NCBI GenBank assembly: GCA_002104905.1
Contig: MCFE01000296.1
Coordinates: 37,603-101,602 of the forward strand
Direction: 5' to 3'
Source of the DNA: Basidiobolus meristosporus CBS 931.73
Taxonomy: Eukaryota; Basidiobolomycota; Basidiobolomycetes; Basidiobolales; Basidiobolaceae
Length of the DNA: 64,000 bases
Numbering within the stretch: the stretch's first letter is position 1; each line of letters starts with the position of its first letter. This document shows, one piece after another, positions 1 through 64,000 of the stretch. A program made the position numbers and the translations under genes. The notes under the pieces were generated by a model that was not told the origin of the DNA, did no database searches, and worked only from the letters and a program-made list of their open reading frames with translations.

Positions 1-2004
1 GGATATAGCCGCGGAGACATGACGGTGCTTGGATTCTGTATAGCCAGTAAATAGGCAGAATCGGACACATATGGTCAACGAAAGACAATCGCATGGCCTC
101 CATAGTGTTGGTCGATGTGATGGCAAACGGCATCACGGAGACAGACTTTCCTAGCCGAAATTGGATGGTGGTTTCATATCCTGGAGCCAACCATCGATGC
201 CAGGTCGTAACTTTATTTCATCAAGGTCTAGGCAGGTGTGGTTCTAGACTACAAACCTGCTTCCAATCGGATGATTTTCAATGATTTTCCTTCATAGGGT
301 GAAAATATCCAATACTGATGTACCATCCGATTTGCAACATGGTGTGAGCAAACTCCCCATGCCGTAACGACGGGATTACCAACTAACATTGTGTACAGAG
401 CCATGGCTCTGCTACCCGGCCTCCACTGAAGTGTCGAGGATCATACCTTGTATCAGCTGCTGTTTGCTAAAGCCCAGCGTGATTGGCACGGGACGGAGAA
501 TAAGTCCTCGGCAACAACCCCGGAACCCCACCCTCCCGGGGGTGAAGTAGGGGAGGTAGTATCTCCCACTCCCTCGGAGTAGTGTGTAATTACGCCAATT
601 CTACAGCTTCATTGATTGGAATCTTCTGTCCAGCACGAAGAGATTTTATTGGTGAGTGGAGTGCATCGTAGACACCAAACTATACCCGCGCCTCTGGTCC
701 CTCCAAGGATAAAAAGAAAGTACGTTAGAAAGGGACTTTCCTAGTATATGCGACGCTTCTATACTCGTCACATTGATTTCCTAATGTGCGAGCGTCACAG
801 ATTCAAATCTATTTTTCGGGTGAGTAACGCACACCAAATCGACGCTGAAATCCTCCAACCCTATTTTGAATCCTGCGACTAACCATAGAAATCCGTCGCC
901 ATCTTCTAAAAGAACATCCAACGTGAATGATGCCTGGCATTTGGAATGGCAAAAATAACCCAGGGTCATGTACTAACGGCCAGGTATCGGTGTATTCTGT
1001 ATGTATATGCCTCTCCGGAATGATTTTGACATTGGTTTCGACTCTATAATGCCCCTCTAGCTCCCCCGGCAGGCTCGAGTCTGTGGACGGGAACGAGGAG
1101 GATAGGCGTTTATCCATGATCACCCTCCAAGGGGGTTGCGATACAAATAGTAAATCGGATAGGTACACCCAAGCACCCTAATTTCAGAAAAACAGACTGT
1201 TTCAAAGATTTTATCTGGCTTCAAAAATACCAGGCGGGAAGAATACCAGGATATTCATTTCCATCAAACCTCACCTTGATCCAATGATTGATCAGGATCC
1301 CTCGACTCCTGATAAACTTGACCATTTTCGAATTCTGAATACAAGGCGTCATAATTGGACGCCTCTTCTTTGTTGCCGGCCTCGACTCATGGCTGAGGTT
1401 GGGCACACTGAAACGTGGTGTTGGTAGCGGATGGCGCTTCAGTAGTGCGGCCCCGCCTATGGGGTGGCCGTGCGGATATGCAGCCCATGTCCTGGACATG
1501 AAAGCCCTGCCATACTGGTTTGCACGATGAGTGATCGATGTGTGTTGTGTAGATAAGTGTCCCTACCGATCACAAGGTCAATCGCGATAAACAAACCCAC
1601 CTTAATCAAAATGAGGCTAGTAGAACTTTGGAAAGATTACAACTGGTGGCATTTCCAATATGCTTCCATAATATATATGTGTACGATTTCTATTTCAGTT
1701 GAGGGCCATTGCTTGAATAGGACGGTGGAATCGACTTCATCCTATAAGGAAGTTTCTGGTGAACTACGCACTACAATTATAGACTGGTGCCTTGATCAAT
1801 GAGAGCGACCGATTTGCTACTGTAGGATTGCGAACCCGGTAATAAATTTACCAGCGTCTTCAAAAGCTTAGTATGCCGTGGAAATACTTGTCCAATAATG
1901 GAAAAGAGCAGCTGTTCCTTTTCACTTAAATAGGCGGTCGGTTTCCACGGTGCGATTGAATCATTTCCTGAGTTTAGGCTATTTATTTTTCTCCCATCTC
2001 CCAC
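1..2004. other. No confident gene
   Basis: About 2 kb without a gene I can support. Minus-strand frames around 781-969, 809-1168 and 1221-1499 have a coding-like composition (for example the peptide LEDGDGFLWLVAGFKIG near 900), and a short intron-like segment could join the first two. The third could not be joined in phase, and no family is recognisable. The stretch may be a decayed or unrecognised gene, or the far end of a gene lying to the left. Confidence 0.5.
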
Positions 2005-3399
2005 ATGAAGTTCAATATTTATTCTACTACTCTGCCTTCCGATACCACTAATTTCATTTCTCAGCCGATCCTCTCACCAAATACCTACAAACGCACCAAA
2101 CAAGAAAACAGACAAACAATGAATGTAAAGGACCCAGCTGGACTAAAGGGAGCTATCATCCCAGATCATATAAGCTCAGATGGCTCCGAAGAGTGGTCAG
2201 GCGGCAACGATAAGAAGTCGAAATTCGCCCCTCCACCTTCCAAGAAGGTCTGTCGGCGCCAAAAGTCTGCTACTCCAGGATCTGAAACGTCAGAGGGACT
2301 ACGGTGCTCCAACTGCCAAACCACTACCACACCTCTCTGGCGCCGTAATCCCCAAGATGGCGAACCATTATGTAACGCCTGCGGCTTGTTCCTGAAGCTG
2401 CACGGCATTGTTCGCCCACTAAGTTTGAAAAGCAATGTGATTAAGAAAAGAAATAGAAACCCCATTGGAACAATGGCCAAGTTCGGCAGACACACCGGGC
2501 TTGTGTTTGGGACAGTTGCCAGCAACCGTGGCGCCGGCTGCGAAGGTGTCTTACTGTTCGAGCCATTCGACAAAACCGCAGAAGCAAATACCAAAGTGTC
2601 TCGCAAGCCACCCACCAGCTTGACCAGCTCGGATGTTTTGGCTACCAACACAACCACACCGTCCTCACCATTGAAGTTCATATCCCACTCGACCACAAAA
2701 TACCCAAGCCCACAGATCGAAAAGGGGCTAAGTTTGGTGGATGAAAGGAGTCGCGAGTCATCGGCCTCATCCTCGGAGTTCTTCTCTGAAGGTTTAGAAA
2801 GCCTCCCCCTATCTGGGGTCCTACATCCAAGCACCTACGTGGATAGTGCATCCCCGGGGCAAAATTCGGAACCGTATCATCCCACCTATTCGATTTCCAC
2901 GAACAGCGTGACCGAGGTGATCGGGTCTACACCTATTTCTAAATCAGGATATCCCAGCACTTCACAGAGCTTAGTGGACCCGTTCAATTGGCTCTCCAAC
3001 CCAACTGTTCACGCCGCCACAAGTATCTCTCTACCCAGCGACCACCATCTCGCCCACGGTCAACCTGAACCTCTGCCAAGCTATTCCTGTACAAATATCC
3101 CCATGTCATATTCTCCCGTCGCGTTTAATACCCTACTCCCCATGGTGCCCATGAACCCGGTGGACTCGCAGCCCAATTTTCAATCCAACATCCGGGCACT
3201 CAATTCCAATTTTGAGCTTGACCATAGCAACCAGGGCAGCCCCGAGAGCTTTGTATCACAGGAATTCCCAGGGCCTACCCCACCCGCCAACTACATGTAC
3301 TCGCTAAATCAAACTTGGCAGTCGTGGAACATTGACAGGAGCCTTCCTTCTTTTCCTATTGAGTCTACCTCGACAACTGAATACCCATCTACCTCGTAG
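2005..3399 (+). CDS. GATA-type zinc-finger transcription factor (paralogue 1)
   Basis: A single-exon gene for a 464-residue nuclear DNA-binding protein of the GATA family, which binds (A/T)GATA(A/G) sites and in fungi commonly controls nitrogen or iron metabolism. One zinc finger is visible with ligands C101, C104, C123 and C126, followed by a basic segment ending VIKKRNRNP, very close to AreA/Gat1 factors. The finger loop is 18 residues (C-x2-C-x18-C-x2-C); AreA-type fingers normally have 17. The rest is Ser/Thr/Pro-rich and probably disordered. The N-terminal AreA domain of the second GATA gene (35704-38007) is missing here. The first ATG is at 2005; a second in-frame ATG at 2119 would remove 38 residues without touching the finger. 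AATAAA-like sequence follows near 3596. The family is certain; the regulon is unknown. Confidence 0.92.
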
Positions 3400-35703: not shown

Positions 35704-38007
35704 TCACTTGAACCATATTGATCCAGAGCCTAACATGTTGTTATCCTCTTCATACTCATACCGATAAGTGAATACCTCATTATTCACGGACTCCCGCTCC
35801 GTTGCTCCTGTCCAGAGAGCACCTTCACCAAAGTAGTCGCTTACGTCTATATCATTGCCAAAACCACTAGGCCCACCATTATTGGAGATGGTGATTGCAT
35901 TGAAGTTTGTTGCAGTGAGCTCAGCCGTGGCTCCCATTAGATTGCCATTGGGCGAAAGTGACGAGATGGCTGGAGAATGAAACGGAAGCATATTGATGTC
36001 AGGCGATACGATGAATGAGGAGAGATTCTGCTCGACTAGGCTGGTTTGAGAACCAGAGTGGTGTGTTGGGTCTAATTGTCGATTGATTTGCTGATCAAAC
36101 GTATTGAATTGAATGTTGGGATTTTCTACAAAAGGATTGGTAGTCAAATCAATTCTGTTTGCGCTTTCGGTAACGGTATCATGTGGTAAAGACAGGTGTG
36201 GGTTTGCTTGGCTGGACATCGATTGAAGGCTTTCCAATTGAAGGTCCATAGTGCTCGGTCCTGGTACACCAGCGACATTCTTCAACTCCGTCATCTGCTC
36301 AGATATACTAAGGGACTGCAGGTCACATGATGTTTCCTGGAGGAAATTAAGGTCATTCTCCTTGATGTCATCAGAGGAAAGTCGACGAAGCCGTTTGTTT
36401 GGAATTGCTTGACCAAGTGAAAATTGGCTTGGTTTGCTAGCGTTCTCAGGATTAAACACATTGGAAGGCAAGCTTGATTTGGAGTCACAGGTGCTATTCG
36501 AGGATGATACCTTGTCGCTTGCCGGATCGGTATAGTTGCTAGGCTGGGTCCCTGAAGTATTACCAGATGCTGAACTACCCTTATTCTCTTTGATCGGGTT
36601 ACGATTTCGCTTTTTGATCACATCCGTTTTTAAACTGAGAGGCCGAACAATGCCATGGAGCTTCAAGAATAAACCACATGCGTTGCATAGAGGTTGTCCA
36701 CCTTGAGGATTGCGCCTCCACAACGGAGTTTTGGTTGTTTTACAATTGGAGCAGCTTGGATTGTCTCCACTGTTCGACTGTGAACCAACATTTCGCTTTG
36801 GCTTACTATTTGTCTTTGAAGCGGAATTGTTGAATCCGTTTGTGGCAATATGTTTCTCTTCCCGCTTTTGACTTGGAATTATATTGCTTGGGGGTTCTGG
36901 AGGATCTTCGGCAATTTGAATGGACGGAAAGGCTCTTACCACCTGAGCAGATGAAGAGCTCGCAGCCACAGCGGGTACGAAAGGGAAGCCTTTCAATGTG
37001 GAATGACCGGACGGATAGGGGTGAGTGTGGAGAGAATTCTTATTATCTGTATCTTCAGCGTTGGTAAATGTCTCCGACTCCATGATATTTATGAAGTCTA
37101 AACCAGACTGGCCGTTGGTATCGGTATAGTATGGCGCTGTGTGGTTGTCTGTCGAGCCCATATTGTGGGTGTTGAAATCCAAATTCTCACCGACTAAGGG
37201 CCCAGCAGTGTGGCCGGCCACCTTTGCCGTTGAAGGCGGGATGCTTCTTGATAAAACAGCAGCAGTGTTTAAGATTCCTATGTCACCAGTACCATCTTTC
37301 ACAAGGTTGAAATTCCAATGGCTGTTTGGAGTTCTGCTGGAAGTAACTATATTGTTACTCTTTACCTCTGGCTTGGTGAAGTTCTGCACACAATGGAGCG
37401 TTAAATTGAATCACTGGTATTACTTCGGTTGAAATTACATTACCAGAACACCTTTGCTTGTCAAGTACGTGTGCTCACGAGTAGCCGGACTAGAGTCTAG
37501 GACAACTTCTGTTGCTTTGGGTACTTCGTCAAAATAAGCTTTCTGTGCAAATAGATTTGGTGAGTGTTCCTCTATTTTGGTGTTCAGTCTTGCATTATCA
37601 CCAACGGAAGCATAAGAATTAAGCTCGTGTATAGAGAGAGAGTCCGTAGATTCTTGCGGGCTAATATACATTTTCGTATCATTGGTAGCTGGACTGGTAG
37701 ATCTAGTTTCTGACACTGCTGCTTTCTGGTTCTTCAAAGTCAAAGCCATCATTCTCCACGAGAGATTTTCTAAACGCTCGCTGTGCTGTAAATTATCTTT
37801 TGCTTTCGAATATAACCGCCATATCTCAGTTGCGAAAGGATATTTCTCGCCTCCTTCTCCAGATTCTTCCTTCTTGGAGACTGAGTCTCTTGGAGGGAAT
37901 AAATTGGAGGAGAGTATTGAGGAATGGACATTTGAAACTGAAGGAGTACAACCTCGGGTTTGAGGAGGGCTCTCCGGTGGAGAATGTAATTCCAAATTCC
38001 TCAACAT
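35704..38007 (-). CDS. AreA/Nit2-like GATA transcription factor (paralogue 2)
   Basis: Two exons (38007-37444, 37383-35704; 60-nt intron, GTAATG...TGCAG, phase 0) give about 747 residues. The N-terminal GATA/AreA domain (DUF1752) is at about 62-94 ([27 protein letters not shown]). The zinc finger has C399, C402, C421 and C424, followed by [14 protein letters not shown]. This order is the one seen in AreA/Nit2, the activator of nitrogen-catabolite genes. The finger loop is 18 residues, like the other GATA gene at 2005-3399 and unlike the usual 17. The remainder is Ser/Asn/Pro-rich. The 3' exon alone has no ATG near its start, so the joined model is needed. Likely role: nitrogen regulation, inferred from domains. 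Confidence 0.92.
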
Positions 38008-48987: not shown

Positions 48988-50451
48988 ATGACTATTTCAA
49001 ACGAGCTCCGTATTCTTGACACCATTCTTGACAATATCGGCAACACTCCCCTTGTGCGTGTCAATAAGATCGCCAAGGCTGAGGGGTTGGAATGTGAGCT
49101 CCTAGCCAAATGCGAGTATTTCAATGCCGGTGGTTCGGTAAAAGATCGCATTGGAAAACGCATGGTTGAGGAGGCCGAAAAGGCTGGCATTCTCAAACCT
49201 GGGTACACAATCATTGAACCCACTTCCGGTAATACCGGTATCGGTCTTGCTCTTGCCGGTGCTGTCAAGGGATACAGAGTCATCATCACTCTCCCCGAGA
49301 AAATGTCTCAAGAGAAGGTAGATGTTCTGAAGGCCTTGGGCGCTGAGATTATCCGCACCCCAACTGAAGCAGCTTGGGACGCTCCTGAATCTCATATCGG
49401 TGTCGCCAGACGCTTGAACAAGGAAATTCCTAACAGCGTCATCTTGGATCAATACGTTAACGTAAACAACCCTATGGCTCACTACGAGGGTACTGCTGAA
49501 GAGATCCTTCGTGCCTGTGACGGGCAGGTGGATATGATTGTTGCTGGCGCTGGTACTGGTGGTACCATTACTGGTATCGCAAAGAAAATCAAGGAGAGAT
49601 GTCCTAATGTTGAGGTTGTTGGTGTTGACCCCTTCGGTTCTATCCTTGCCCTTCCAGAATCTTTGAACGAAACCGATGTTACTACGTACAAGGTTGAGGG
49701 AATTGGATATGATTTCATTCCTGATGTCCTCCAGCGTCAATATATCGATACATGGGTCAAGAGCAACGATAGGGATTCTTTTATCATGGCTAGGCGTCTT
49801 ATCAGAGAAGAAGGCCTTCTGTGCGGTGGATCATCTGGTACTGCCATGGCAGCTGCAGTCAAGGTTGCCAAAAAACTCAAAGCCGGTCAACGTTGCGTTG
49901 TTATCTTACCAGATTCTGTACGTAATTACATGAGCAAGTTCTTGAATGATGATTGGATGAAAGAGAGTGGTTTCTCCGACTCCACCAGTCAAAAGGAGGA
50001 GCGCCAGCAAACCGAGAAATGGGGTGGTGCTACCATCAAAGACCTCAACCTTCCTGCTGCTATCACTGTGCAACCAAAGACTACTTGCCGTGAGGCCTTG
50101 AGTATTATGGAGAAGAACAGTTTTGATCAGCTCCCCGTGGTTTCCGAAACCCACCGCGTGGTTGGTTTGGTAACTATGGGAAACATCCTGTCGAAAGTTT
50201 GTTCCGGCAAGATTACCGGTGACGCACCGGTAAGCATGGTCATGTTCAAATTCACCACTGTTGGAAAGGACTTCTTCGAGATTTCAGTGAACACACCATT
50301 AGCAGAGATGTCTCGTTTCTTTGAAACCAACTCATCAGCCATCGTCACAGAGAGAACATCTGATGTGGAAAAGGTTTCCACTGCTGAGTTGAAAGTTCTC
50401 CACATAGTGACCAAAGTAGACTTGTTATCCTGGTTAATGAAGCAGTTGTAA
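48988..50451 (+). CDS. CYS4: Cystathionine beta-synthase
   Basis: One exon, 487 residues. It condenses homocysteine with serine to cystathionine in the transsulfuration route to cysteine. The PLP domain occupies about 1-330, with K52 in GGSVKDR as the cofactor lysine, [13 protein letters not shown] as the substrate loop, and [14 protein letters not shown] as the phosphate-binding loop. A linker and a C-terminal pair of CBS (Bateman) motifs follow (about 365-487; [18 protein letters not shown]). The animal N-terminal heme-binding segment is absent, as in yeast Cys4. Codon use is biased towards C- and T-ending preferred codons, suggesting strong expression. O-acetylserine-type cysteine synthases lack the Bateman tail, so CBS is favoured. 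Confidence 0.95.
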
Positions 50452-57080: not shown

Positions 57081-57098
57081 TTAGGGTTAGTCAGGGGG
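57081..57098 (+). repeat. Telomere-type junction J1
   Basis: TTAGGGTTAGTCAGGGGG at the left edge of the array, immediately before the 3' end of the first element. It is one and a half TTAGGG repeats with a degenerate G-rich continuation. Confidence 0.75.
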
Positions 57099-57476
57099 AC
57101 AATCATCACCTAAGGGTGAAATCTGTTGTAAAAATTTGTATTTCCACCTAAATATTCACCTAACCTAGTCACTTAGATCATTACCTTCAAATCCTAGAGA
57201 ATACTGACCAAATTCCTTGTTGGGATTTACTTAGAATATTTACCCAGAACATGAAAATTCTCAAAGTTGTCCAAACAGCCCCAAACTTTGCACACATGCT
57301 CTTGAGACCTTCTTTAATTTTTTCTACGTGTTTGTAATGCCAAGACCAGGTAAAAGTATAAATACTACTTTTACATTCAATAAATCATTCAGTGAAAACC
57401 ACATAATCTACTTGTTCTCCAAATCACTTCCAATATCTCCAAGACTCTTACAACAATCCCTCACATTATATTGGAT
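57099..57476 (-). mobile_element. Non-coding element with telomeric 3' end (family 3)
   Basis: A 378-bp unit flanked by telomere-type repeats on both sides. Read on the minus strand, its 3' end is a stem-loop (57106-57119; TCACC-TAAG-GGTGA on the + strand) followed by a C-rich tail, the same design as the LINE and SINE in this array, but its body shares no evident sequence with them. It contains a perfect 9-bp inverted repeat (57350-57374: GTAAAAGTA, 7-nt loop, TACTTTTAC). It has no coding frame. It could be the 5'-truncated tail of another LINE or an independent short element. Confidence 0.6.
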
Positions 57477-57490
57477 TTAGGGTTAGGGGG
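57477..57490 (+). repeat. Telomere-type junction J2
   Basis: TTAGGGTTAGGGGG, joining the 5' end of the family-3 element to the 3' end of the first SINE copy. Confidence 0.85.
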
Positions 57491-58006
57491 AGGAAAGTCA
57501 CCAAGTGGTGAAATCTTTATTTACTTATGACAAGTATCTAAAGAAGCCAAGTTAATCTGAAGTTATACCTAGAAAGCTAGGTCTGAGAGATATCTTTCTG
57601 GTAAGCCAGGTCTGAGAGTTGAGAACTGAGTAGTACTATATTTCCTAGTTAGCTAGGTCAGAGAGAGGTTTCCTGGAAAGCCAGGCCTGAGAAGTGAGAA
57701 TCTGGATATATCTGAGCTAAGTTATACTGGTTTGCAGTAGCTGAATTGTGGCCAGAATGGCCAGTAGACTGGGGGAACTGAGAGGAATTTCTGGGCAATC
57801 ACTGGCCAAATTTACTAGGCAAATCTGGCCAATTAGCATTTCAAGGATCTCAGCCAATCAGAGCCTTTACTTTGCCCAATGGTTGATCAAGCCATCTCCC
57901 AATGAGCACACATCAATTTATTAATCAAATTTTGCTGAATCCAGGATTTGAACCCACAACCATGGGTATGGAAGGGTTAGGGATAACCACAAGGCTAAGT
58001 GTTCTT
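57491..58006 (-). mobile_element. tRNA-headed SINE, copy 1 (full or near full length)
   Basis: About 516 bp, transcribed leftward. The 5' head has RNA polymerase III promoter boxes: box A (TTAGCCTTGTGGTTA as minus strand, 57984-57998) and a perfect box B (GGTTCAAATCC, 57944-57954), about 30 nt apart, with T-arm-like pairing around box B. The body holds four small hairpins (57568-57581, 57597-57610, 57644-57657, 57672-57685). The 3' end, in transcript sense, has AATAAAGATTTCACC leading into the stem-loop (57498-57511) and a C-rich telomere-complementary end. The last about 30 nt match the LINE 3' end, so it is presumably mobilised by the LINE reverse transcriptase. Confidence 0.75.
57568..57685 (-). 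other. Four-hairpin RNA module in SINE copy 1
   Basis: Four 14-nt hairpins with 5-bp stems and 4-nt loops: CCTAG-AAAG-CTAGG, TCTGG-TAAG-CCAGG, CCTAG-TTAG-CTAGG, CCTGG-AAAG-CCAGG (+ strand). Stems alternate between A-T and G-C at the fourth pair, a compensatory difference. Spacing (29, 47, 28 nt) indicates a 75-76-nt unit of two hairpins duplicated once. Confidence 0.75.
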
Positions 58007-58017
58007 GGTTAGGGGGG
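58007..58017 (+). repeat. Telomere-type junction J3
   Basis: GGTTAGGGGGG, joining the 5' end of SINE copy 1 to the 3' end of LINE copy 1. Confidence 0.8.
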
Positions 58018-58071
58018 AGACAGTCACCAACCGGTGAAATCTTTATTTCAGTTGAAACAAAGAAGCCAGCG

Positions 58072-60840
58072 CTACTGTTGTAGCTTTGATACAAGAGTGT
58101 GTAGCTGAGGGGAATTTGTAGGTAAGTTAATAAGAAGTGATGATAGTTCTTCAGTGCTCAAGACACTGTTCAGTGGGAAGGGGGGTAGCAAGAGAGGTAG
58201 GAATGACTTGTGAACAACATTAATGAGGGGAATGTGATAAGGATTGATATTCATCATAAAGGGAGTGTGCTGCTGCAGATATTGCTGCCAAAGGTCTGTC
58301 AAGTACTTCAGGTAGGCCAGCTTGGGTTTTTCTGACTGCAGAATATAGTGTGCAAACTTCTTGACTTCAGGATCTCCAAGTATAGTTCTCCAGCAGGAGC
58401 CAGGTGTTGTGTGGTGTGTTCTCTTCCAGGCCTTAATCAGTGGATTGTTACAGTTGTGAAGTCTGAGGTATAATCTGGTTCTAAGGTAGAGAAGTCTGAT
58501 CTTATAGGGCATAAACCCAAAAGCACCAAGAATAGCATGTCTGTAGGGGCATTCAGGCAAATGAGGCACCAAGGAGGTAATGCACCATACTGCAAACTTG
58601 TCAAGCTTAGTGCAGTCTCTAGAAGTAAGAGAGAGAAGTGGTAAGCCAAATTCCAGGACAGGGAAGACAAACTGCTTGAGTAAAAGGAGGCAGCTGGGAG
58701 CTGAAGTTGTAGGAGGAGTAACAGCCAGTAGCTTGTGGAGTGCCTGTCTTGCCAGGATGATTCTCTTCTTCAGGTGTGCTCCAGAGTCTAGTCCAGTAGG
58801 AAGGAAAGGAAAGCCAAGATATGTAGCAGAAACCTGAGCAGGTAGAGTGGAGTTCTCCAAGTTGATGGGAGAGCCCAAAGGTACTGTCTTTGCAATGGAA
58901 AGCTGGAGATTATTCTTCTGCAGATACTGGTGGATGGTCTGGGAGTCTTGTTGCACATTGGAGGAGGATATTCTGATGTCATCAGCAAAGAGAGTAACCA
59001 GGCAGTCAGCTGAGAGTCTTGGGAAATCATTCAGGAAGATGGCAAACAGTATAGGACCAAGCACAGAGCCTTGAACCACTCCATTAGGAACTGAGAACAT
59101 AGCTGATTGCTCACTTGGGTGCAGAATTCTTGCTTGTGGATCCAGAAACAGAGACCTGACAAGGAGGGTGAGAGAGGTACTGGAGAAGCATTGCAACTTG
59201 GACCAAAGCAGATTTCTGTCAACTGAATCAAAGGCCTTAGTAATATCAAACAGAACAGAGGGATACTTGCACTGGAGAGAGTGATCTTGGCTAAGTATGA
59301 CTGCATATTCCAAGGAGAGGCCAGGAATAAAGCCTAACTGTGCAGGATGAAACTTGAGGGAGTCAGAGTAGAGCTCCTGAGCAAGCAGAAGCTCAAACAC
59401 CTTTCTGCAGGTGGGTAGCAGAGATATTGGCCTGTAGGAGCTAGGATCCAGGTGCTTTCCTTTACCCTTGTACAGTGGTAGAACATTTGCAAAGGACCAT
59501 TCTTCAGGAGTAGAAAGTTGGGCTGAACATTGCTGAAACAGTGGAAGCAGAAGTGCAGACATGGCCTTGGTACTAGTCTTCAGAAGCTCATAGGAGATTG
59601 TGTCCACACCTGGAGCAGTAGAGTTGGGAAGCCTCTTGAGCACATTATGGATTCTCCTTTGATCAAGTGCAAGTGGGATGGGCAGAGTCTTGAAGTCAGG
59701 ATGAAAGCCAGGAGTTGAGTACTGCTTTGTGGAGAAGAAGATGTTAGCCAGCTGTTCTGTTGAAGGTAACTTCCTGGAAGAGGGCCTCATTGCCCTGTAG
59801 AGTCTTGATACTGTTCTTGTTATAGAGTTGGAAGATTGCAGAGGCAAAGAACTCATAATATGATCCCAGAGCTGAGTATGCAGAGTTTGGTGAATTGCCT
59901 TGGAGTGGTGTATTGCTGTCAGGAGGAGTTTCTCTGTTTTTGGGTTAGGGAAACTCAGGTAGCTTTGTTGCAGGGCTGAAACAATGGATTCCCATTTTCT
60001 TGAGGTAACAGCAGTAGTCTTGCATGGCAGTGAGAGGGAGGCAGACACCAGAATCAGATGCTTCACAAAGAGCCAGGCATAGTTGAGATCATCTGGCAGA
60101 GAAAGTAGCAAACTGGCAAGCTTCAAGTAGTTCCCAAAGTCTTTCTTCTGATTCTTGGTAGCTTTGTGGGTGAGCACAGTAAGCTTTGGCAGCTTCTTCT
60201 TCACAACTGGTTGCATAGAAAGGGACCAGGCTGGGTGGTCAGAGGCTCTCAAGGATCCTAGCTCAGCTCCAGAGAATTGCTTAACTTCATTCACAAAGTA
60301 GAGGGCAGCAGCAGAAGGGCAGATCCAGTCAACACATCTTTTCTCAGATTGAGCACCTAGTGCTAGCAGGTGGCTTTCTCTCAGGAAGTTCAGTAGGAAT
60401 GTAGACCTTGGCTTCATTCTTGCAGTCAGAGTAGTCTTGTTCTCAGGATGGGGAATGTTGAGATCTCCAAGCAAGATAACAGGTGTTGATTTAGATTGTT
60501 GGTATTGCTGAACCTTCTGGCATATAACTTGCACTTCCTGAAGGGCAAGACTTGGAGGCAGATAGCAGAGCACCAGACTGATAGTTGGCAACTGGAGAGC
60601 AGCACAGTAAGGGGAGTAAAGAGGAACACAGAGCTGAGGAGTATTGATGGTAGAAGAGATGAAGCAGATAGAGGAGGTATTCTTTGTTCTAGGAGTAGAA
60701 AAGCAATATAGATTAGTCAAAAGTATAGAGAGTAGCTGTACATCAATCAAACACAGGAGGGAAAATCTTGAAAGAAGTCTCTCTAGAGTTGGTCTTGATG
60801 GCTGTATGCTGTTGCAGTTAAGCAACAGAACTTCAGGTAG
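58072..60840 (-). CDS. LINE ORF2: endonuclease-reverse transcriptase
   Basis: An open frame of about 922 codons following the ORF1 stop in the same frame. Counting from codon 60825: an APE-like endonuclease region at about 1-200 (LLNCNSI, ILLGDLNIPHP at 118-128, ASDHPAW at 194-200); a linker; reverse transcriptase at about 440-720 (SSYRPISLLPTCRKVFE, LFDITKAFDSVDRNLLW with catalytic D527, GVVQGSVLGPILFAIFLND, and TLFADDIR with D615-D616); then a thumb and C-terminal region ending LVSKLQQ. No ATG occurs until codon 137 (60415-60417), inside the endonuclease, so the frame probably depends on readthrough of the preceding UGA or reinitiation. The usual Glu of the endonuclease LQE motif is not obvious (CLIDVQ there), so endonuclease activity is doubtful. 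The RT appears intact. Confidence 0.88.
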   Translation of the reverse strand, partial: LPEVLLLNCNSIQPSRPTLERLLSRFSLLCLIDVQLLSILLTNLYCFSTPRTKNTSSICFISSTINTPQLCVPLYSPYCAALQLPTISLVLCYLPPSLALQEVQVICQKVQQYQQSKSTPVILLGDLNIPHPENKTTLTARMKPRSTFLLNFLRESHLLALGAQSEKRCVDWICPSAAALYFVNEVKQFSGAELGSLRASDHPAWSLSMQPVVKKKLPKLTVLTHKATKNQKKDFGNYLKLASLLLSLPDDLNYAWLFVKHLILVSASLSLPCKTTAVTSRKWESIVSALQQSYLSFPNPKTEKLLLTAIHHSKAIHQTLHTQLWDHIMSSLPLQSSNSITRTVSRLYRAMRPSSRKLPSTEQLANIFFSTKQYSTPGFHPDFKTLPIPLALDQRRIHNVLKRLPNSTAPGVDTISYELLKTSTKAMSALLLPLFQQCSAQLSTPEEWSFANVLPLYKGKGKHLDPSSYRPISLLPTCRKVFELLLAQELYSDSLKFHPAQLGFIPGLSLEYAVILSQDHSLQCKYPSVLFDITKAFDSVDRNLLWSKLQCFSSTSLTLLVRSLFLDPQARILHPSEQSAMFSVPNGVVQGSVLGPILFAIFLNDFPRLSADCLVTLFADDIRISSSNVQQDSQTIHQYLQKNNLQLSIAKTVPLGSPINLENSTLPAQVSATYLGFPFLPTGLDSGAHLKKRIILARQALHKLLAVTPPTTSAPSCLLLLKQFVFPVLEFGLPLLSLTSRDCTKLDKFAVWCITSLVPHLPECPYRHAILGAFGFMPYKIRLLYLRTRLYLRLHNCNNPLIKAWKRTHHTTPGSCWRTILGDPEVKKFAHYILQSEKPKLAYLKYLTDLWQQYLQQHTPFMMNINPYHIPLINVVHKSFLPLLLPPFPLNSVLSTEELSSLLINLPTNSPQLHTLVSKLQQ

Positions 60841-60846
60841 TCAGGC
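60835..60846 (-). promoter_or_regulatory. Candidate stop-codon readthrough site UGA-CUA
   Basis: The ORF1 stop reads GCC TGA CTA CCT on the minus strand and is followed without a frame change by ORF2. UGA-CUA is the best documented leaky stop context in viruses, animals and fungi. No ATG exists between this stop and the endonuclease core. Confidence 0.6.
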
Positions 60847-61400
60847 AGAGGTTGTAGCTTCTTCAGAGGCAGCATTGATAATGTGACCTGCAGAGTCCCA
60901 GAGCTCTTCAAATGGTGCATCACTTAAGTCAGCAAGGAGGGAAATGGCATGAATCTTGAGGAAGTATGCCACATCATAGGAGGGGGCTTGTCTCTTGATG
61001 GCAGCAAAGAAAGACAGAATGGCAACATGGGCTGGAGGCTTGTTGAACAGTAGAGAGTCAGAGGATTCAGATTCTTCAGGCACTATCTTGAAGTCAGTTT
61101 TCAGCCAGTTAAGGTTCTTCTCCACAAAGGCAACAAATGGGTCAGCAATGTTTTGGTCTAGGATAACCTCCAGAATCTTCCCTTTTCTCCAGGCCAGGTT
61201 GACAATTCTTGAGAGCTGAATATTGCATGCCTTGAGTGCTTTCCTGATGTTGGAAATGGGAGTCCAGGGAACTTGCTTCAAGTACACCACAGTCCAGGTA
61301 GAAGCTGGTGGTAGGTTTGCTGGGGGCTTGTAAGTCCTTCTGTGTTGCAATGGAGCTGCAGTAGTCAGATTGGAGTCCACATTCTCAGTAGAAGGTTTTC
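60841..61400 (-). CDS. LINE ORF1 protein, 3' part
   Basis: The C-terminal 186 codons of the first LINE frame, cut at its 5' side by the copy's truncation. The product includes STWTVVYLKQVPWTPISNIR and GKILEVILDQNIADPFVAFV, compatible with an RRM-like RNA-binding fold, followed by a helical tail ending SEEATTSA and TGA (60843-60841). ORF1 proteins usually bind element RNA as a chaperone. An apparent continuation upstream (VTVSPLTL) is merely read-through into the telomere repeat and the neighbouring LINE tail and is not part of the protein. Confidence 0.7.
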
Positions 61401-61415
61401 TTAGGGTTAGGGGGG
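61401..61415 (+). repeat. Telomere-type junction J4
   Basis: TTAGGGTTAGGGGGG-type stretch between the truncated 5' end of LINE copy 1 and the 3' end of LINE copy 2. Confidence 0.88.
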
Positions 61416-62017
61416 AGACAGTCACCAACCGGTGAAATCTTTATTTCAGTTGAAACAAAGAAGCCAGCACTACTGTTGTAGCTTTGATACAAGAGTGTGT
61501 AGCTGAGGGGAAGTTGTAGGTAAGTTAATAAGAAGTGATGATAGTTCTTCAGTGCTCAAGACACTGTTCAGTGGGAAGGGGGGTAGCAAAAGAGGTAGGA
61601 ATGACTTGTGAACAACATTAATGAGGGGAATGTGATAAGGATTGGTATTCATCATAAAGGGAGTGTGCTGCTGCAGATATTGCTGCCAAAGGTCTGTCAA
61701 GTACTTCAGGTAGGCCAGCTTGGGTTTTTCTGACTGCAGAATAAGTTCAGCAAACTTCTTGACTTCAGGATCTCCAAGTATAGTTCTCCAGCAGGAGCCA
61801 GGTGTTGTGTGGAGTGTTCTCTTCCAGGCCTTAATCAGTGGATTGTTACAGTTGTGAAGTCTGAGGTATAATCTGGTTCTAAGGTAGAGAAGTCTGATCT
61901 TATAGGGCATAAACCCAAAAGCACCAAGAATAGCATGTCTGTAGGGGCATTCAGGCAAATGAGGCACCAAGGAGGTAATGCACCATACTGCAAACTTGTC
62001 AAGCTTAGTGCAGTCTC
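61416..62017 (-). mobile_element. LINE copy 2, severely 5'-truncated
   Basis: About 600 bp equal to the 3' end of the LINE. The stem-loop is at 61422-61435 (loop AACC). It encodes only the last part of ORF2 (61470-62017; RDCTKLDKFAVWC to LVSKLQQ). It differs from copy 1 by scattered substitutions, including a short diverged patch (FAELIL versus FAHYIL). Its 5' end stops at the sequence CTCTAG, where TAG fuses to the G run of the next junction. Confidence 0.88.
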
Positions 62018-62026
62018 TAGGGGGGG
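62018..62026 (+). repeat. Telomere-type junction J5 (minimal)
   Basis: TAGGGGGGG. The TAG is native LINE sequence (also present in copy 1 at the same place), so the junction uses a 3-nt match to TTAGGG rather than a full repeat. Confidence 0.75.
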
Positions 62027-63295
62027 AGACAGTCACCAACAGGTGAAATCTTTATTTCAGTTGAAACAAAGAAGCCAGTGCTACTGTTGTAGCTTTGATA
62101 CAAGAGTGTGTAGCTGAGGGGAATTTGTAGGTAAGTTTACAAGAAGTGATGATAGTTCTTCAGTGCTCAAGACGCTGTTCAGTGGGAAGGGGGGTAGCAA
62201 GAGAGGTAAGAATGACTTGTGAACAACATTAATGAGGGGAATGTGATAAGGATTGATATTCATCATAAAGGGAGTGTGCTGCTGCAGATATTGCTGCCAA
62301 AGGTCTGTCAAGTACTTCAGGTAGGCCAGCTTGGGTTTTTCTGACTGCAGAATATAGTGTGCAAACTTCTTGACTTCAGGATCTCCAAGTATAGTTCTCC
62401 AGCAGGAGCCAGGTGTTGTGTGGTGTGTTCTCTTCCAGGCCTTAATCAGTGGGTTGTTGCAGTTGTGAAGTCTGAGGTATAATCTGGTTCTAAGGTAGAG
62501 AAGTCTGATCTTATAGGGCATAAACCCAAAAGCACCAAGAATAGCATGTCTGTAGGGGCATTCAGGCAAATGAGGCACCAAGGAGGTAATGCACCATACT
62601 GCAAACTTGTCAAGCTTAGTGCAGTCTCTAGAAGTAAGAGAGAGAAGTGGTAAGCCAAATTCCAGGACAGGGAAGACAAACTGCTTGAGTAGAAGGAGGC
62701 AGCTGGGAGCTGAAGTTGTAGGAGGAGTAACAGCCAGTAGCTTGTGGAGTGCCTGTCTTGCCAGGATAATTCTCTTCTTCAGGTGTGCTCCAGAGTCTAG
62801 TCCAGTAGGAAGGAAAGGAAAGCCAAGATATGTAGCAGAAACCTGAGCAGGTAGAGTGGAGTTCTCCAAGTTGATAGGAGAGCCCAAAGGTACTGTCTTT
62901 GCAATGGAAAGCTGAAGATTATTCTTCTGCAGATACTGGTGGATGGTCTGGGAGTCTTGTTGCACATTGGAGGAGGATATTCTGATGTCATCAGCAAAGA
63001 GAGTAACCAGGCAGTCAGCTGAGAGTCTTGGGAAGTCATTCAGGAAGATGGCAAACAGTATAGGACCAAGCACAGAGCCTTGAACCACTCCATTAGGAAC
63101 TGAGAACACAGCTGATTGCTCACTTGGGTGCAGAATTCTTGCTTGTGGATCCAGAAACAGAGACCTGACAAGGAGGGTGAGAGAGGTACTGGAGAAGCAT
63201 TGCAACTTGGACCAAAGCAGATTTCTGTCAACTGAATCAAAGGCCTTAGTAATATCAAACAGAACAGAGGGATACTTGCACTGGAGAGAGTGATC
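62027..63295 (-). mobile_element. LINE copy 3, 5'-truncated within the RT domain
   Basis: About 1.27 kb. The 3' stem-loop is at 62033-62046 (loop AACA). The ORF2 frame stays open from 62081 to the truncated end (about 63295), covering RT from the FDITKAFDS region through FADD and the C-terminus, with very few substitutions relative to copy 1. This indicates recent, nearly synchronous copies. No start codon remains, so it is not a functional gene by itself. Confidence 0.88.
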
Positions 63296-63304
63296 TTAGG
63301 GGGG
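63296..63304 (+). repeat. Telomere-type junction J6 (minimal)
   Basis: TTAGGGGGG. In copy 1 the LINE reads GATCTTGGC here; copy 3 ends at GATCTT, so the two T residues are shared with TTAGGG. Confidence 0.75.
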
Positions 63305-63788
63305 AGGAAAGTCACCAAGTGGTGAAATCTTTATTTACTTATGACAAGTATCTAAAGAAGCCAAGTTAATCTGAAGTAATTCCTAGAAAGCTAGGTCTGA
63401 GAGATATCTTCCTGGTAAGCCAGGTCTGAGAGTTGAGAAGCTGAGTGGTACTGTATTTCCTAGTTAGCTAGGTCTTAGAGAGGTTTCCTGGAAAACCAGG
63501 CCTGAGAAGTGAGAATCTGAATATATCTGAGCTAAGTTATACTGGTTTGCGGTAGCTGAATTGTGGCCGGAATGGCCAGTAGACTGGGGGAACTGAGATG
63601 AATTTCTGGGCGATCACTGGCCAAATTTACTAGGCAAATCTGGCCAATTAGCATTTCAAGGATTTCAGCCAATCAGAGCCTTTACTTTGCCCGATGGTTG
63701 ATCAAGCCATCTCCCAATGAGCACACATCAATTTATTGATCAAATTTTGTTGGATCCAGGATTTGAACCCACAACCATGGGTATGGAA
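63305..63788 (-). mobile_element. tRNA-headed SINE, copy 2 (5'-truncated)
   Basis: About 485 bp closely matching copy 1. The 3' stem-loop is at 63312-63325 (loop AAGT). The four hairpins are at 63382-63395, 63411-63424, 63459-63472 and 63487-63500, with stems all perfect. Box B is retained (63759-63769), but box A is missing because the copy stops at the internal GGGTTAGGG of the tRNA-like head. It is therefore probably not transcribable on its own. Confidence 0.75.
63382..63500 (-). other. Four-hairpin RNA module in SINE copy 2
   Basis: Same four hairpins as in copy 1, with loops AAAG, TAAG, TTAG and AAAA. The second stem is CCTGG-CCAGG here against TCTGG-CCAGG in copy 1 (a G-C pair where copy 1 has a U-G wobble). 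The surrounding sequence has changed more than the stems. Confidence 0.72.
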
Positions 63789-63811
63789 GGGTTAGGGTAG
63801 GGTTAGGGGGG
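63789..63811 (+). repeat. Telomere-type junction J7
   Basis: GGGTTAGGG, TAGGG, TTAGGGGGG in a row: the longest telomere-type stretch in the array, with one repeat shortened to TAGGG. The first part overlaps the SINE's own internal TTAGGG. Confidence 0.85.
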
Positions 63812-64000
63812 AGACAGTCACCAACAGGTGAAATCTTTATTTCAGTTGAAACAAAGAAGCCAGCGCTACTGTTGTAGCTTTGATACAAGAGTGTGTAGCT
63901 GAGGGGAATTTGTAGGTAAGTTAATAAGAAGTGATGATAGTTCTTCAGTGCTCAAGACACTGTTCAGTGGAAGGGGGGTAGCAAGAGAGGTAAGAATGAC
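63812..64000 (-). mobile_element. LINE copy 4, 3' end only (continues beyond window)
   Basis: The 3' end of a fourth LINE copy, with stem-loop at 63818-63831 (loop AACA). Near 63967-63970 it has one G fewer than copies 1-3 (CAGTGGAAGG versus CAGTGGGAAGG), which would shift the ORF2 frame near its C-terminus. The rest lies outside the window. Confidence 0.8.

What the first reader, a model, noticed from the sequence alone, without database searches (positions are those of the whole stretch)
57081..64000. Head-to-tail array of retroelements built on telomere repeats, all with 3' ends facing the chromosome interior
Seven units (family 3, SINE, LINE, LINE, LINE, SINE, LINE) share one orientation and are separated only by TTAGGG-type stretches. 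On the + strand each junction reads telomere G-strand and then the complement of an element's 3' end. That is the product expected if RNA is reverse transcribed directly from the 3'-OH of a telomere on the right. No poly(A) tails or target-site duplications are visible. Known parallels: Drosophila HeT-A/TART, endonuclease-deficient Penelope-like elements, Magnaporthe MoTeR. A LINE and SINE alternating at a fungal chromosome end would be a new combination as far as I know.
Basis: partly seen in the sequence, partly recalled or inferred. Interest (0 to 1): 0.9.

Follow-up and report, generated by a model that had tools for sequence, protein, structure and literature searches.

The report
Telomere-dwelling jumping genes in Basidiobolus
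At the chromosome ends of a fungus, several families of copy-and-paste jumping genes, including a short one that seems to borrow a bigger one's machinery, are stacked nose to tail between scraps of telomere sequence, apparently built up by many separate additions.

Summary
Confirmed, and it holds across the genome. The window is the right end of contig C531 of an 89-Mb Basidiobolus genome, probably B. meristosporus. It holds six head-to-tail units (SINE, LINE, LINE, LINE, SINE, LINE).

Of 667 exact LINE-A 3' ends in the genome, 598 have TAGGG within 6 nt. All 152 tails examined on contigs of at least 40 kb (108 contigs) face inward, within 18.3 kb of the end. One end (C726), read in full, also holds an inverted three-element block. 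12 of 23 element-bearing ends finish in TTAGGG.

LINE and SINE share a 3' tail: AATAAA, UCACC/GGUGA hairpin, C-run, CCCTAA. Diverged LINEs share it; a distant LINE lineage (LINE-Z) has the same placement without the hairpin. 150 of 150 junctions compared differ. Spacers are short (median 12 nt; caps about 200).

A telomerase gene is present and the LINE has an APE-type endonuclease domain, so this is neither telomerase replacement nor plainly endonuclease-deficient. Best reading: telomere-dedicated retroelements, with a LINE-SINE pair, added to short or broken ends. End-priming is likelier than nick-priming, but unproven.

The parts
57081..57123 (-). Remnant of a telomeric element's 3' tail, TTAGGGTTAG TCA GGGGG ... 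hairpin
   Evidence: sequence; member of tail family D6
57124..57455 (.).
   Evidence: same unit in both orientations at other loci; target duplication GGTTAT at L111:5411-5741; none at the window copy
57477..57488 (+). (TTAGGG)2 junction tract
57489..58008 (-). SINE-A copy 1, full-length to 5' end CCAAGAAC; strict B box GTTCAAATC; strict A box not found
58009..58017 (+). Junction TTAGGGGGG
58015..61400 (-). LINE-A copy 1, 3.39 kb of about 4.57 kb, 5'-truncated
58072..60840 (-). LINE-A ORF2, 922 codons stop to stop, APE-type endonuclease plus reverse transcriptase
   Evidence: RVT_1 E=1.5e-24, Exo_endo_phos_2 E=1.4e-4 (22.2 bits, below its 27.4-bit cut-off)
60841..61400 (-). 3' part of LINE-A ORF1; its stop TGA (60841-60843) is followed by CTA in the same frame as ORF2
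   Evidence: (TGACTA in 16 of 16 copies matched)
61401..61412 (+). (TTAGGG)2 junction tract
61413..62020 (-). LINE-A copy 2, 0.6 kb, 5'-truncated; its 5' end CTCTAG overlaps the next junction by 3 in-phase nt
62021..63297 (-). LINE-A copy 3, 1.28 kb, 5'-truncated
63299..63797 (-). SINE-A copy 2, 5' end lost at its internal CCCTAACCC
63798..63808 (+). Junction tract TAGGGTTAGGG
63809..64000 (-). LINE-A copy 4, cut by the contig end

Best explanation
A telomere-dedicated consortium of non-LTR retroelements in Basidiobolus. Shown: LINE-A (ORF1, and ORF2 with an APE-type domain plus RT), a SINE with a tRNA-like head and further LINE lineages sit at contig ends, 3' end inward, in head-to-tail arrays, wherever tails could be placed. 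Inferred: the LINE protein recognises the shared 3' RNA tail (hairpin plus C-run), which lets the SINE use it. Reverse transcription is primed by the 3'-OH of a G-strand end that has lost most of its TTAGGG. The end pairs by 1-5 in-phase bases with a CCCUAA/C-run stretch at the RNA 3' end. The cDNA's 5' end, often truncated, becomes the new chromosome end. Telomerase then re-caps it with about 200 nt, or another element is added. The confidence is for this whole reading; the telomere-dedicated LINE-SINE array itself is about 0.93 likely, and end-priming over nick-priming about 0.6.
Against: An APE-type domain is kept, and in LINE-Z it scores above the Pfam cut-off; a purely end-primed element would not need it. 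Short tracts could instead reflect later loss: in Magnaporthe, interstitial tracts of three or more repeats are reported as fragile (PMC7367193, passages). Seeds fit telomerase healing before insertion equally well, and the seed excess is weak if all 52 truncated junctions are kept with the unclear ones as 0 (mean 1.02; 779 of 20,000 draws). Some spacers are longer: 19 of 130 reach 18 nt, and 5 of 20 LINE-Z tracts reach 18 nt. One end (C726) has three inverted elements. Regular tail spacing at C96 and C474 suggests some tandem duplication, and the junction sample, mostly one per contig, would under-see it.
Confidence: 0.58

Rival explanations
1. Site-specific target-primed insertion, TRAS/SART- or MoTeR-like: the APE-type domain nicks the G-strand within duplex telomere repeats near the subtelomere boundary, so each new element enters just distal to the last one and the terminal array is never lost.
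For: APE-type domain in LINE-A and LINE-Z; SART1 needs only three repeats (PMC7265360, abstract and passages); gives the same orientation and head-to-tail arrays.
Against: Caps are about 200 nt, so entry at random places should leave long proximal tracts, yet 111 of 130 are under 18 nt and the longest is 58 nt. The catalytic Glu position reads Asp in the window protein and in both relatives that cover it, against Glu in the 12 of 12 outgroup rows aligned.
Confidence: 0.25
2. Recombination at uncapped ends: broken or short ends copy element blocks from other ends by break-induced replication, as described for MoTeR arrays in telomerase-deleted Pyricularia; retrotransposition is rare.
For: MoTeR precedent (PMC7367193 and PMC8381367, passages); tails about 530 nt apart on C96 and about 500 nt apart on C474; the inverted block on C726.
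Against: 150 of 150 junctions outside the SINE 5' end differ; copied blocks would repeat junctions. The sample was mostly one junction per contig plus the arrays of 20 fetched ends, so repeats within one array are under-sampled.
Confidence: 0.12
3. Assembly effect: contigs break inside repeats, so elements only look terminal.
For: 11 of 23 element-bearing ends checked do not finish in TTAGGG; forward and reverse hits are oddly skewed 1308 to 127.
Against: Breakage does not fix orientation, yet 152 of 152 face inward; 12 of 23 ends finish in TTAGGG; TAGGG beside 598 of 667 tails.
Confidence: 0.02

Closest known systems
MoTeR1/MoTeR2 of Magnaporthe/Pyricularia oryzae (PMC7367193, passages read)
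   Same: Head-to-tail arrays at fungal telomeres, 5' ends toward the tip, short (TTAGGG)n between units, an autonomous and a non-autonomous partner sharing the 3' end, in-frame seeds at truncations.
   Different: MoTeR1 has a restriction-like endonuclease; MoTeR2 shares both ends with MoTeR1 around an unrelated middle and is not a tRNA-like SINE; tracts there range up to more than 20 repeats.
FoTeR of Fusarium oxysporum (PMC12857005, passages read) and CNL1 of Cryptococcus (PMC12810828, passages read)
   Same: Fungal non-LTR elements at telomeres, with interstitial repeats or subtelomeric arrays.
   Different: FoTeR has a restriction-like endonuclease and CNL1 groups with R2/MoTeR; no SINE partner in the passages read; CNL1 also inserts in an internal gene.
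SART1/TRAS of Bombyx mori (PMC7265360, passages read)
   Same: APE-type (recalled) telomere-specific LINEs living beside a telomere repeat; short telomere-like RNA stretches help start reverse transcription.
   Different: SART1 needs a poly(A) tail for accurate insertion and at least three target repeats; no partner SINE in the passages read; clade kinship not tested here.
HeT-A/TART/TAHRE of Drosophila (recalled, and a passage of the PMC7265360 introduction)
   Same: Growth by addition at the chromosome end; head-to-tail with 3' end inward (recalled).
   Different: There telomerase and its repeats are absent; here TTAGGG caps and a telomerase gene match remain.
Stringent LINE-SINE pairs such as eel UnaL2 and zebrafish ZfL2 (PMC4176376, passages read)
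   Same: A SINE shares its LINE's 3' stem-loop tail.
   Different: Not described as telomere-directed in the passages read.

Membership tests
APE-type LINE (non-LTR retrotransposon) | RT domain of non-LTR type | tested here: met
   RVT_1 E=1.5e-24; best solved-structure match is a LINE-1 ORF2 protein
APE-type LINE (non-LTR retrotransposon) | N-terminal APE-like endonuclease with catalytic residues | tested here: inconclusive
   Domain found, below the Pfam cut-off; Asn, Tyr, GDxN and SDH motifs present, Glu position is Asp (motif names recalled); structure prediction not available
APE-type LINE (non-LTR retrotransposon) | Variable 5' truncation and fixed 3' end | tested here: met
tRNA-derived SINE | Internal Pol III boxes in a tRNA-like head | tested here: inconclusive
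   Strict B box GTTCAAATC; no strict A box; no tRNA by ARAGORN or Rfam up to E=5
tRNA-derived SINE | 3' tail shared with a partner LINE | tested here: met
tRNA-derived SINE | Pol III transcription and mobilisation by the LINE | not testable with these tools
   no expression or mobility data
MoTeR/FoTeR (restriction-like endonuclease telomeric elements) | Restriction-like endonuclease after the RT | tested here: not met
   Pfam finds an APE-type domain N-terminal to the RT and nothing after the RT in LINE-A or LINE-Z; the MoTeR motif itself was not aligned
MoTeR/FoTeR (restriction-like endonuclease telomeric elements) | Head-to-tail arrays with interstitial TTAGGG, 5' end outward | tested here: met
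HeT-A/TART-type telomere replacement | Telomerase and its repeats absent | tested here: not met
   Telomerase_RBD match over cut-off on C880; 186-232-nt TTAGGG caps
TRAS/SART | Poly(A) at the 3' end next to the telomere repeat | tested here: not met
   Tail runs straight into C-run/CCCTAA in the junctions read
TRAS/SART | RT belongs to the R1 clade | not tested
   No labelled reference set was at hand
Endonuclease-deficient Penelope-like elements | Penelope-type RT, no endonuclease | tested here: not met
   Non-LTR RT plus APE-type domain

The most novel reading that the evidence does not exclude
A guild of LINE lineages and a SINE extends chromosome ends by end-primed reverse transcription, using an RNA 3' end that carries about two CCCUAA units as a telomerase-like annealing template. 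It thus acts as a back-up to telomerase on eroded or broken ends. Two distant LINE lineages would have reached the same habit, one of them with a decayed endonuclease.
Probability: 0.3. Interest if true: 0.86.

Novelty: new variant of a known kind. Interest (0 to 1): 0.72.

Why it matters
It adds a phylum (Basidiobolomycota) and a LINE-SINE partnership to the few telomeric retroelement systems known in fungi, with hundreds of copies in one genome beside TTAGGG caps and a telomerase gene. Because the junctions compared are nearly all unique and the SINE shares the tail, the copies form a natural record from which the rules of end addition (seed length, template limit, slippage) can be read and tested. 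The Glu-to-Asp change in the endonuclease, shared by the three proteins that cover the site, makes the question of end-primed versus nick-primed reverse transcription directly testable.

Tried and rejected
Considered and rejected. Assembly artefact (orientation fixed, terminal TTAGGG at 12 of 23 ends). Restriction-like-endonuclease MoTeR relative (APE-type domain instead). Telomerase replacement (telomerase gene match and caps present). 'Family 3' as a retroelement (solo LTR in a tail remnant). tRNA identity of the SINE head (ARAGORN and Rfam negative; only the B box is strict). The hairpin stem cannot be tested by covariation because the stem did not vary in the families read. LINE clade placement was not attempted for want of labelled references.

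Corrections found on checking. My note says 8 of 15 ends finish in TTAGGG; recounting one search gives 7 of 15. One search scored 13 unclear junctions as 0 where one search has 12, so it was redone. The strict tract count undercounts imperfect tracts (a tract of about 55 nt was scored as 2), so a tolerant count was made; the peaks at 3 and 9 nt belong to the strict count.

Literature. Nine searches, PMC open library only, seen as listings; passages were read of PMC7367193, PMC12857005, PMC7265360, PMC12810828, PMC8381367, PMC4176376, PMC4207609, PMC7473861, PMC4700185 and PMC10386755. Only asked for Basidiobolus; no title or abstract start there is about its telomeres. The telomeric-SINE phrases gave one paper, a frog genome. 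'Not found in print' rests on these alone.
Full report
WHAT THE WINDOW IS. The window is G000:C531:37603-101602 and its right edge is the contig's end. The cystathionine beta-synthase encoded at 48988-50448 has its best named match (92%) in Basidiobolus meristosporus CBS 931.73; the 100% match is the window's own protein. With 89.0 Mb in 1311 contigs the source is a Basidiobolus, probably that species (inference). NCBI places it in Basidiobolomycota.

THE ARRAY. On the + strand each unit begins with telomere G-strand and then the complement of a 3' tail. All seven tails found run one way. Two units are SINE-A (about 520 nt) and four are LINE-A, each truncated at the 5' end or cut by the contig end. 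The leftmost 'family 3' is a 43-nt tail remnant holding a 332-bp solo LTR with TG...CA ends; the LTR lies elsewhere in both orientations and has a GGTTAT duplication at L111.

ANATOMY. The longest LINE-A copies are about 4.57 kb and several share that 5' end. ORF1 is a 523-codon open frame, stop to stop, in L019; ORF2 is a 922-codon open frame in the same frame, the two separated by TGA CTA in the 16 of 16 copies matched. ORF2 has RVT_1 (E=1.5e-24) and an APE-type domain (Exo_endo_phos_2, E=1.4e-4, below the curated cut-off); the best solved-structure match is a LINE-1 ORF2 protein. In the 16-row alignment the APE Glu position is Asp in the window protein and in the two relatives that cover it (P0001, P0003), and Glu in 12 of 12 outgroup rows; P0005 starts after it (motif names recalled). 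The 3' tail in sense is AATAAA, then UUUCACC-loop-GGUGA, then a C-run, then CCCTAA. LINE-A, SINE-A and families C and D share it with different loops. Three tails fold with the hairpin; z-scores are -2.9, -1.0 and -4.4, so the SINE tail alone is not exceptional. The SINE head has a strict B box but no strict A box, and no tRNA match in ARAGORN or Rfam.

TELOMERES. Of 23 element-bearing ends read to the contig end, 12 finish in TTAGGG: 7 of 15, 4 of 7, and C726. Caps measured in seven are 186-232 nt. A telomerase RNA-binding domain is found on C880 in two pieces over the Pfam cut-off, one of them with a stop codon inside the match, in a search that ignores introns. Telomerase is therefore probably present.

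JUNCTIONS. In 130 junctions the strict telomere-phase stretch left of the terminal G-run peaks at 3 nt (21) and 9 nt (22); 24 have 0-2 and 12 have 10 or more. A tolerant count including the G-run gives a median of 12 nt; 19 of 130 reach 18 nt, 8 reach 24, 2 reach 40, and 8 have no TAGG unit. Of 38 further junctions 37 were scorable (one, L117, at a neighbouring tail) and 3 have 10 or more strict nt. Of 20 LINE-Z junctions 10 have 12-15 nt; the range is 0-27 and 5 reach 18. G-runs of LINE-A vary from 4 to 12 with a mode of 6. All 150 junctions other than SINE full-length 5' ends differ from each other; two pairs share a 17-mer upstream, one of them telomeric repeat; 21 further junctions start at the SINE's own 5' end. 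Of 72 junctions whose left side is LINE-A or SINE-A, 52 are truncated: 27 join cleanly, 12 have 1-6 unexplained nt and 13 have more. Mean in-phase overlap is 1.96 nt in the 27 against 0.75 in simulation (0 of 20,000 draws), 1.36 with the 12 as 0 (25 of 20,000), and 1.02 with all 25 as 0 (779 of 20,000). The choice of clean junctions was made after seeing them.

MECHANISM. Shown: placement at ends, polarity, shared tail, distinct junctions, short tracts, an excess of in-phase seeds. Inferred: recognition of the tail by the LINE protein, SINE parasitism, priming from an end with little telomere left, annealing of the RNA's C-run/CCCUAA, later capping by telomerase. Tracts of mostly two repeats or fewer would follow if the RNA template carries about two CCCUAA units. 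They could also follow if longer interstitial tracts break, as reported for three or more repeats in Magnaporthe (PMC7367193 passages). Two LINE lineages with similar tract lengths fit either. Nick-primed insertion by the APE-type domain remains the main rival.

RELATIVES. ORF2 relatives at 48-80% identity come only from unnamed short contigs. Arrays here also hold RT fragments at 39-52% to LINE-A (L010, L019, L020, L023); in L019 and L020 they sit beside a C-type tail of the same design. LINE-Z (L018, L028; 27-29% to LINE-A) has an APE-type domain over cut-off, a different 3' end without the hairpin running into CCCTAACCCTAA, and its nearest named relative (37%) in Smittium mucronatum. So at least two LINE lineages share the placement.

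KNOWN SYSTEMS. MoTeR arrays are the nearest parallel in layout, with an autonomous and a non-autonomous partner. FoTeR and CNL1 are others. All three differ in endonuclease type or kinship. SART1 is the nearest functional parallel with telomere repeats. In nine literature searches, seen as listings, no title or abstract start described Basidiobolus telomeric elements or a SINE at fungal telomeres.

Noticed in passing
window 60838-60843 (-) and 15 other LINE-A copies: ORF1 and ORF2 are in one frame separated by TGA CTA in the 16 of 16 copies matched; CUA after UGA was sufficient for stop-codon readthrough in reporter tests of PMC4207609 (passages), so ORF2 may be made by readthrough.
   Followed up: partly
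L018:5118-8290, L028:432-3661: A second telomeric LINE lineage (LINE-Z) with a different 3' end and a relative in Smittium mucronatum; 31 tails genome-wide.
   Followed up: partly
G000:C726:56351-61025 (L111 and L017): An inverted block of LINE-A, SINE-A and LINE-A inside an otherwise normal terminal array; could record an end fusion or fold-back repair.
   Followed up: partly
L022:5892-6000: The LINE-A 5' terminal 110 nt is repeated in tandem at the 5' end of one copy.
   Followed up: no
L026:8495-8504 and window 57973-57982: Both LINE-A (5' UTR) and SINE-A (head) carry an internal AGGGTTAGGG (CCCTAACCCT in sense); the second window SINE is cut there.
   Followed up: no
whole genome G000: Tail matches are skewed 1308 forward to 127 reverse, so contigs are mostly written with the telomere at the right; cause unknown.
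   Followed up: no
G000:C96:10658-12776 and C474:103341-104338: Runs of tails about 530 nt and about 500 nt apart, as in tandem duplication.
   Followed up: no
window 48988-50448: The named B. meristosporus CBS 931.73 protein is only 92% identical to the window's, suggesting a diverged haplotype or paralogue in that species, or a close relative.
   Followed up: no
window 1978-3399 (+) and 35704-37410 (-): Two open frames with GATA-type zinc-finger motifs in one 64-kb stretch (motif recalled).
   Followed up: no
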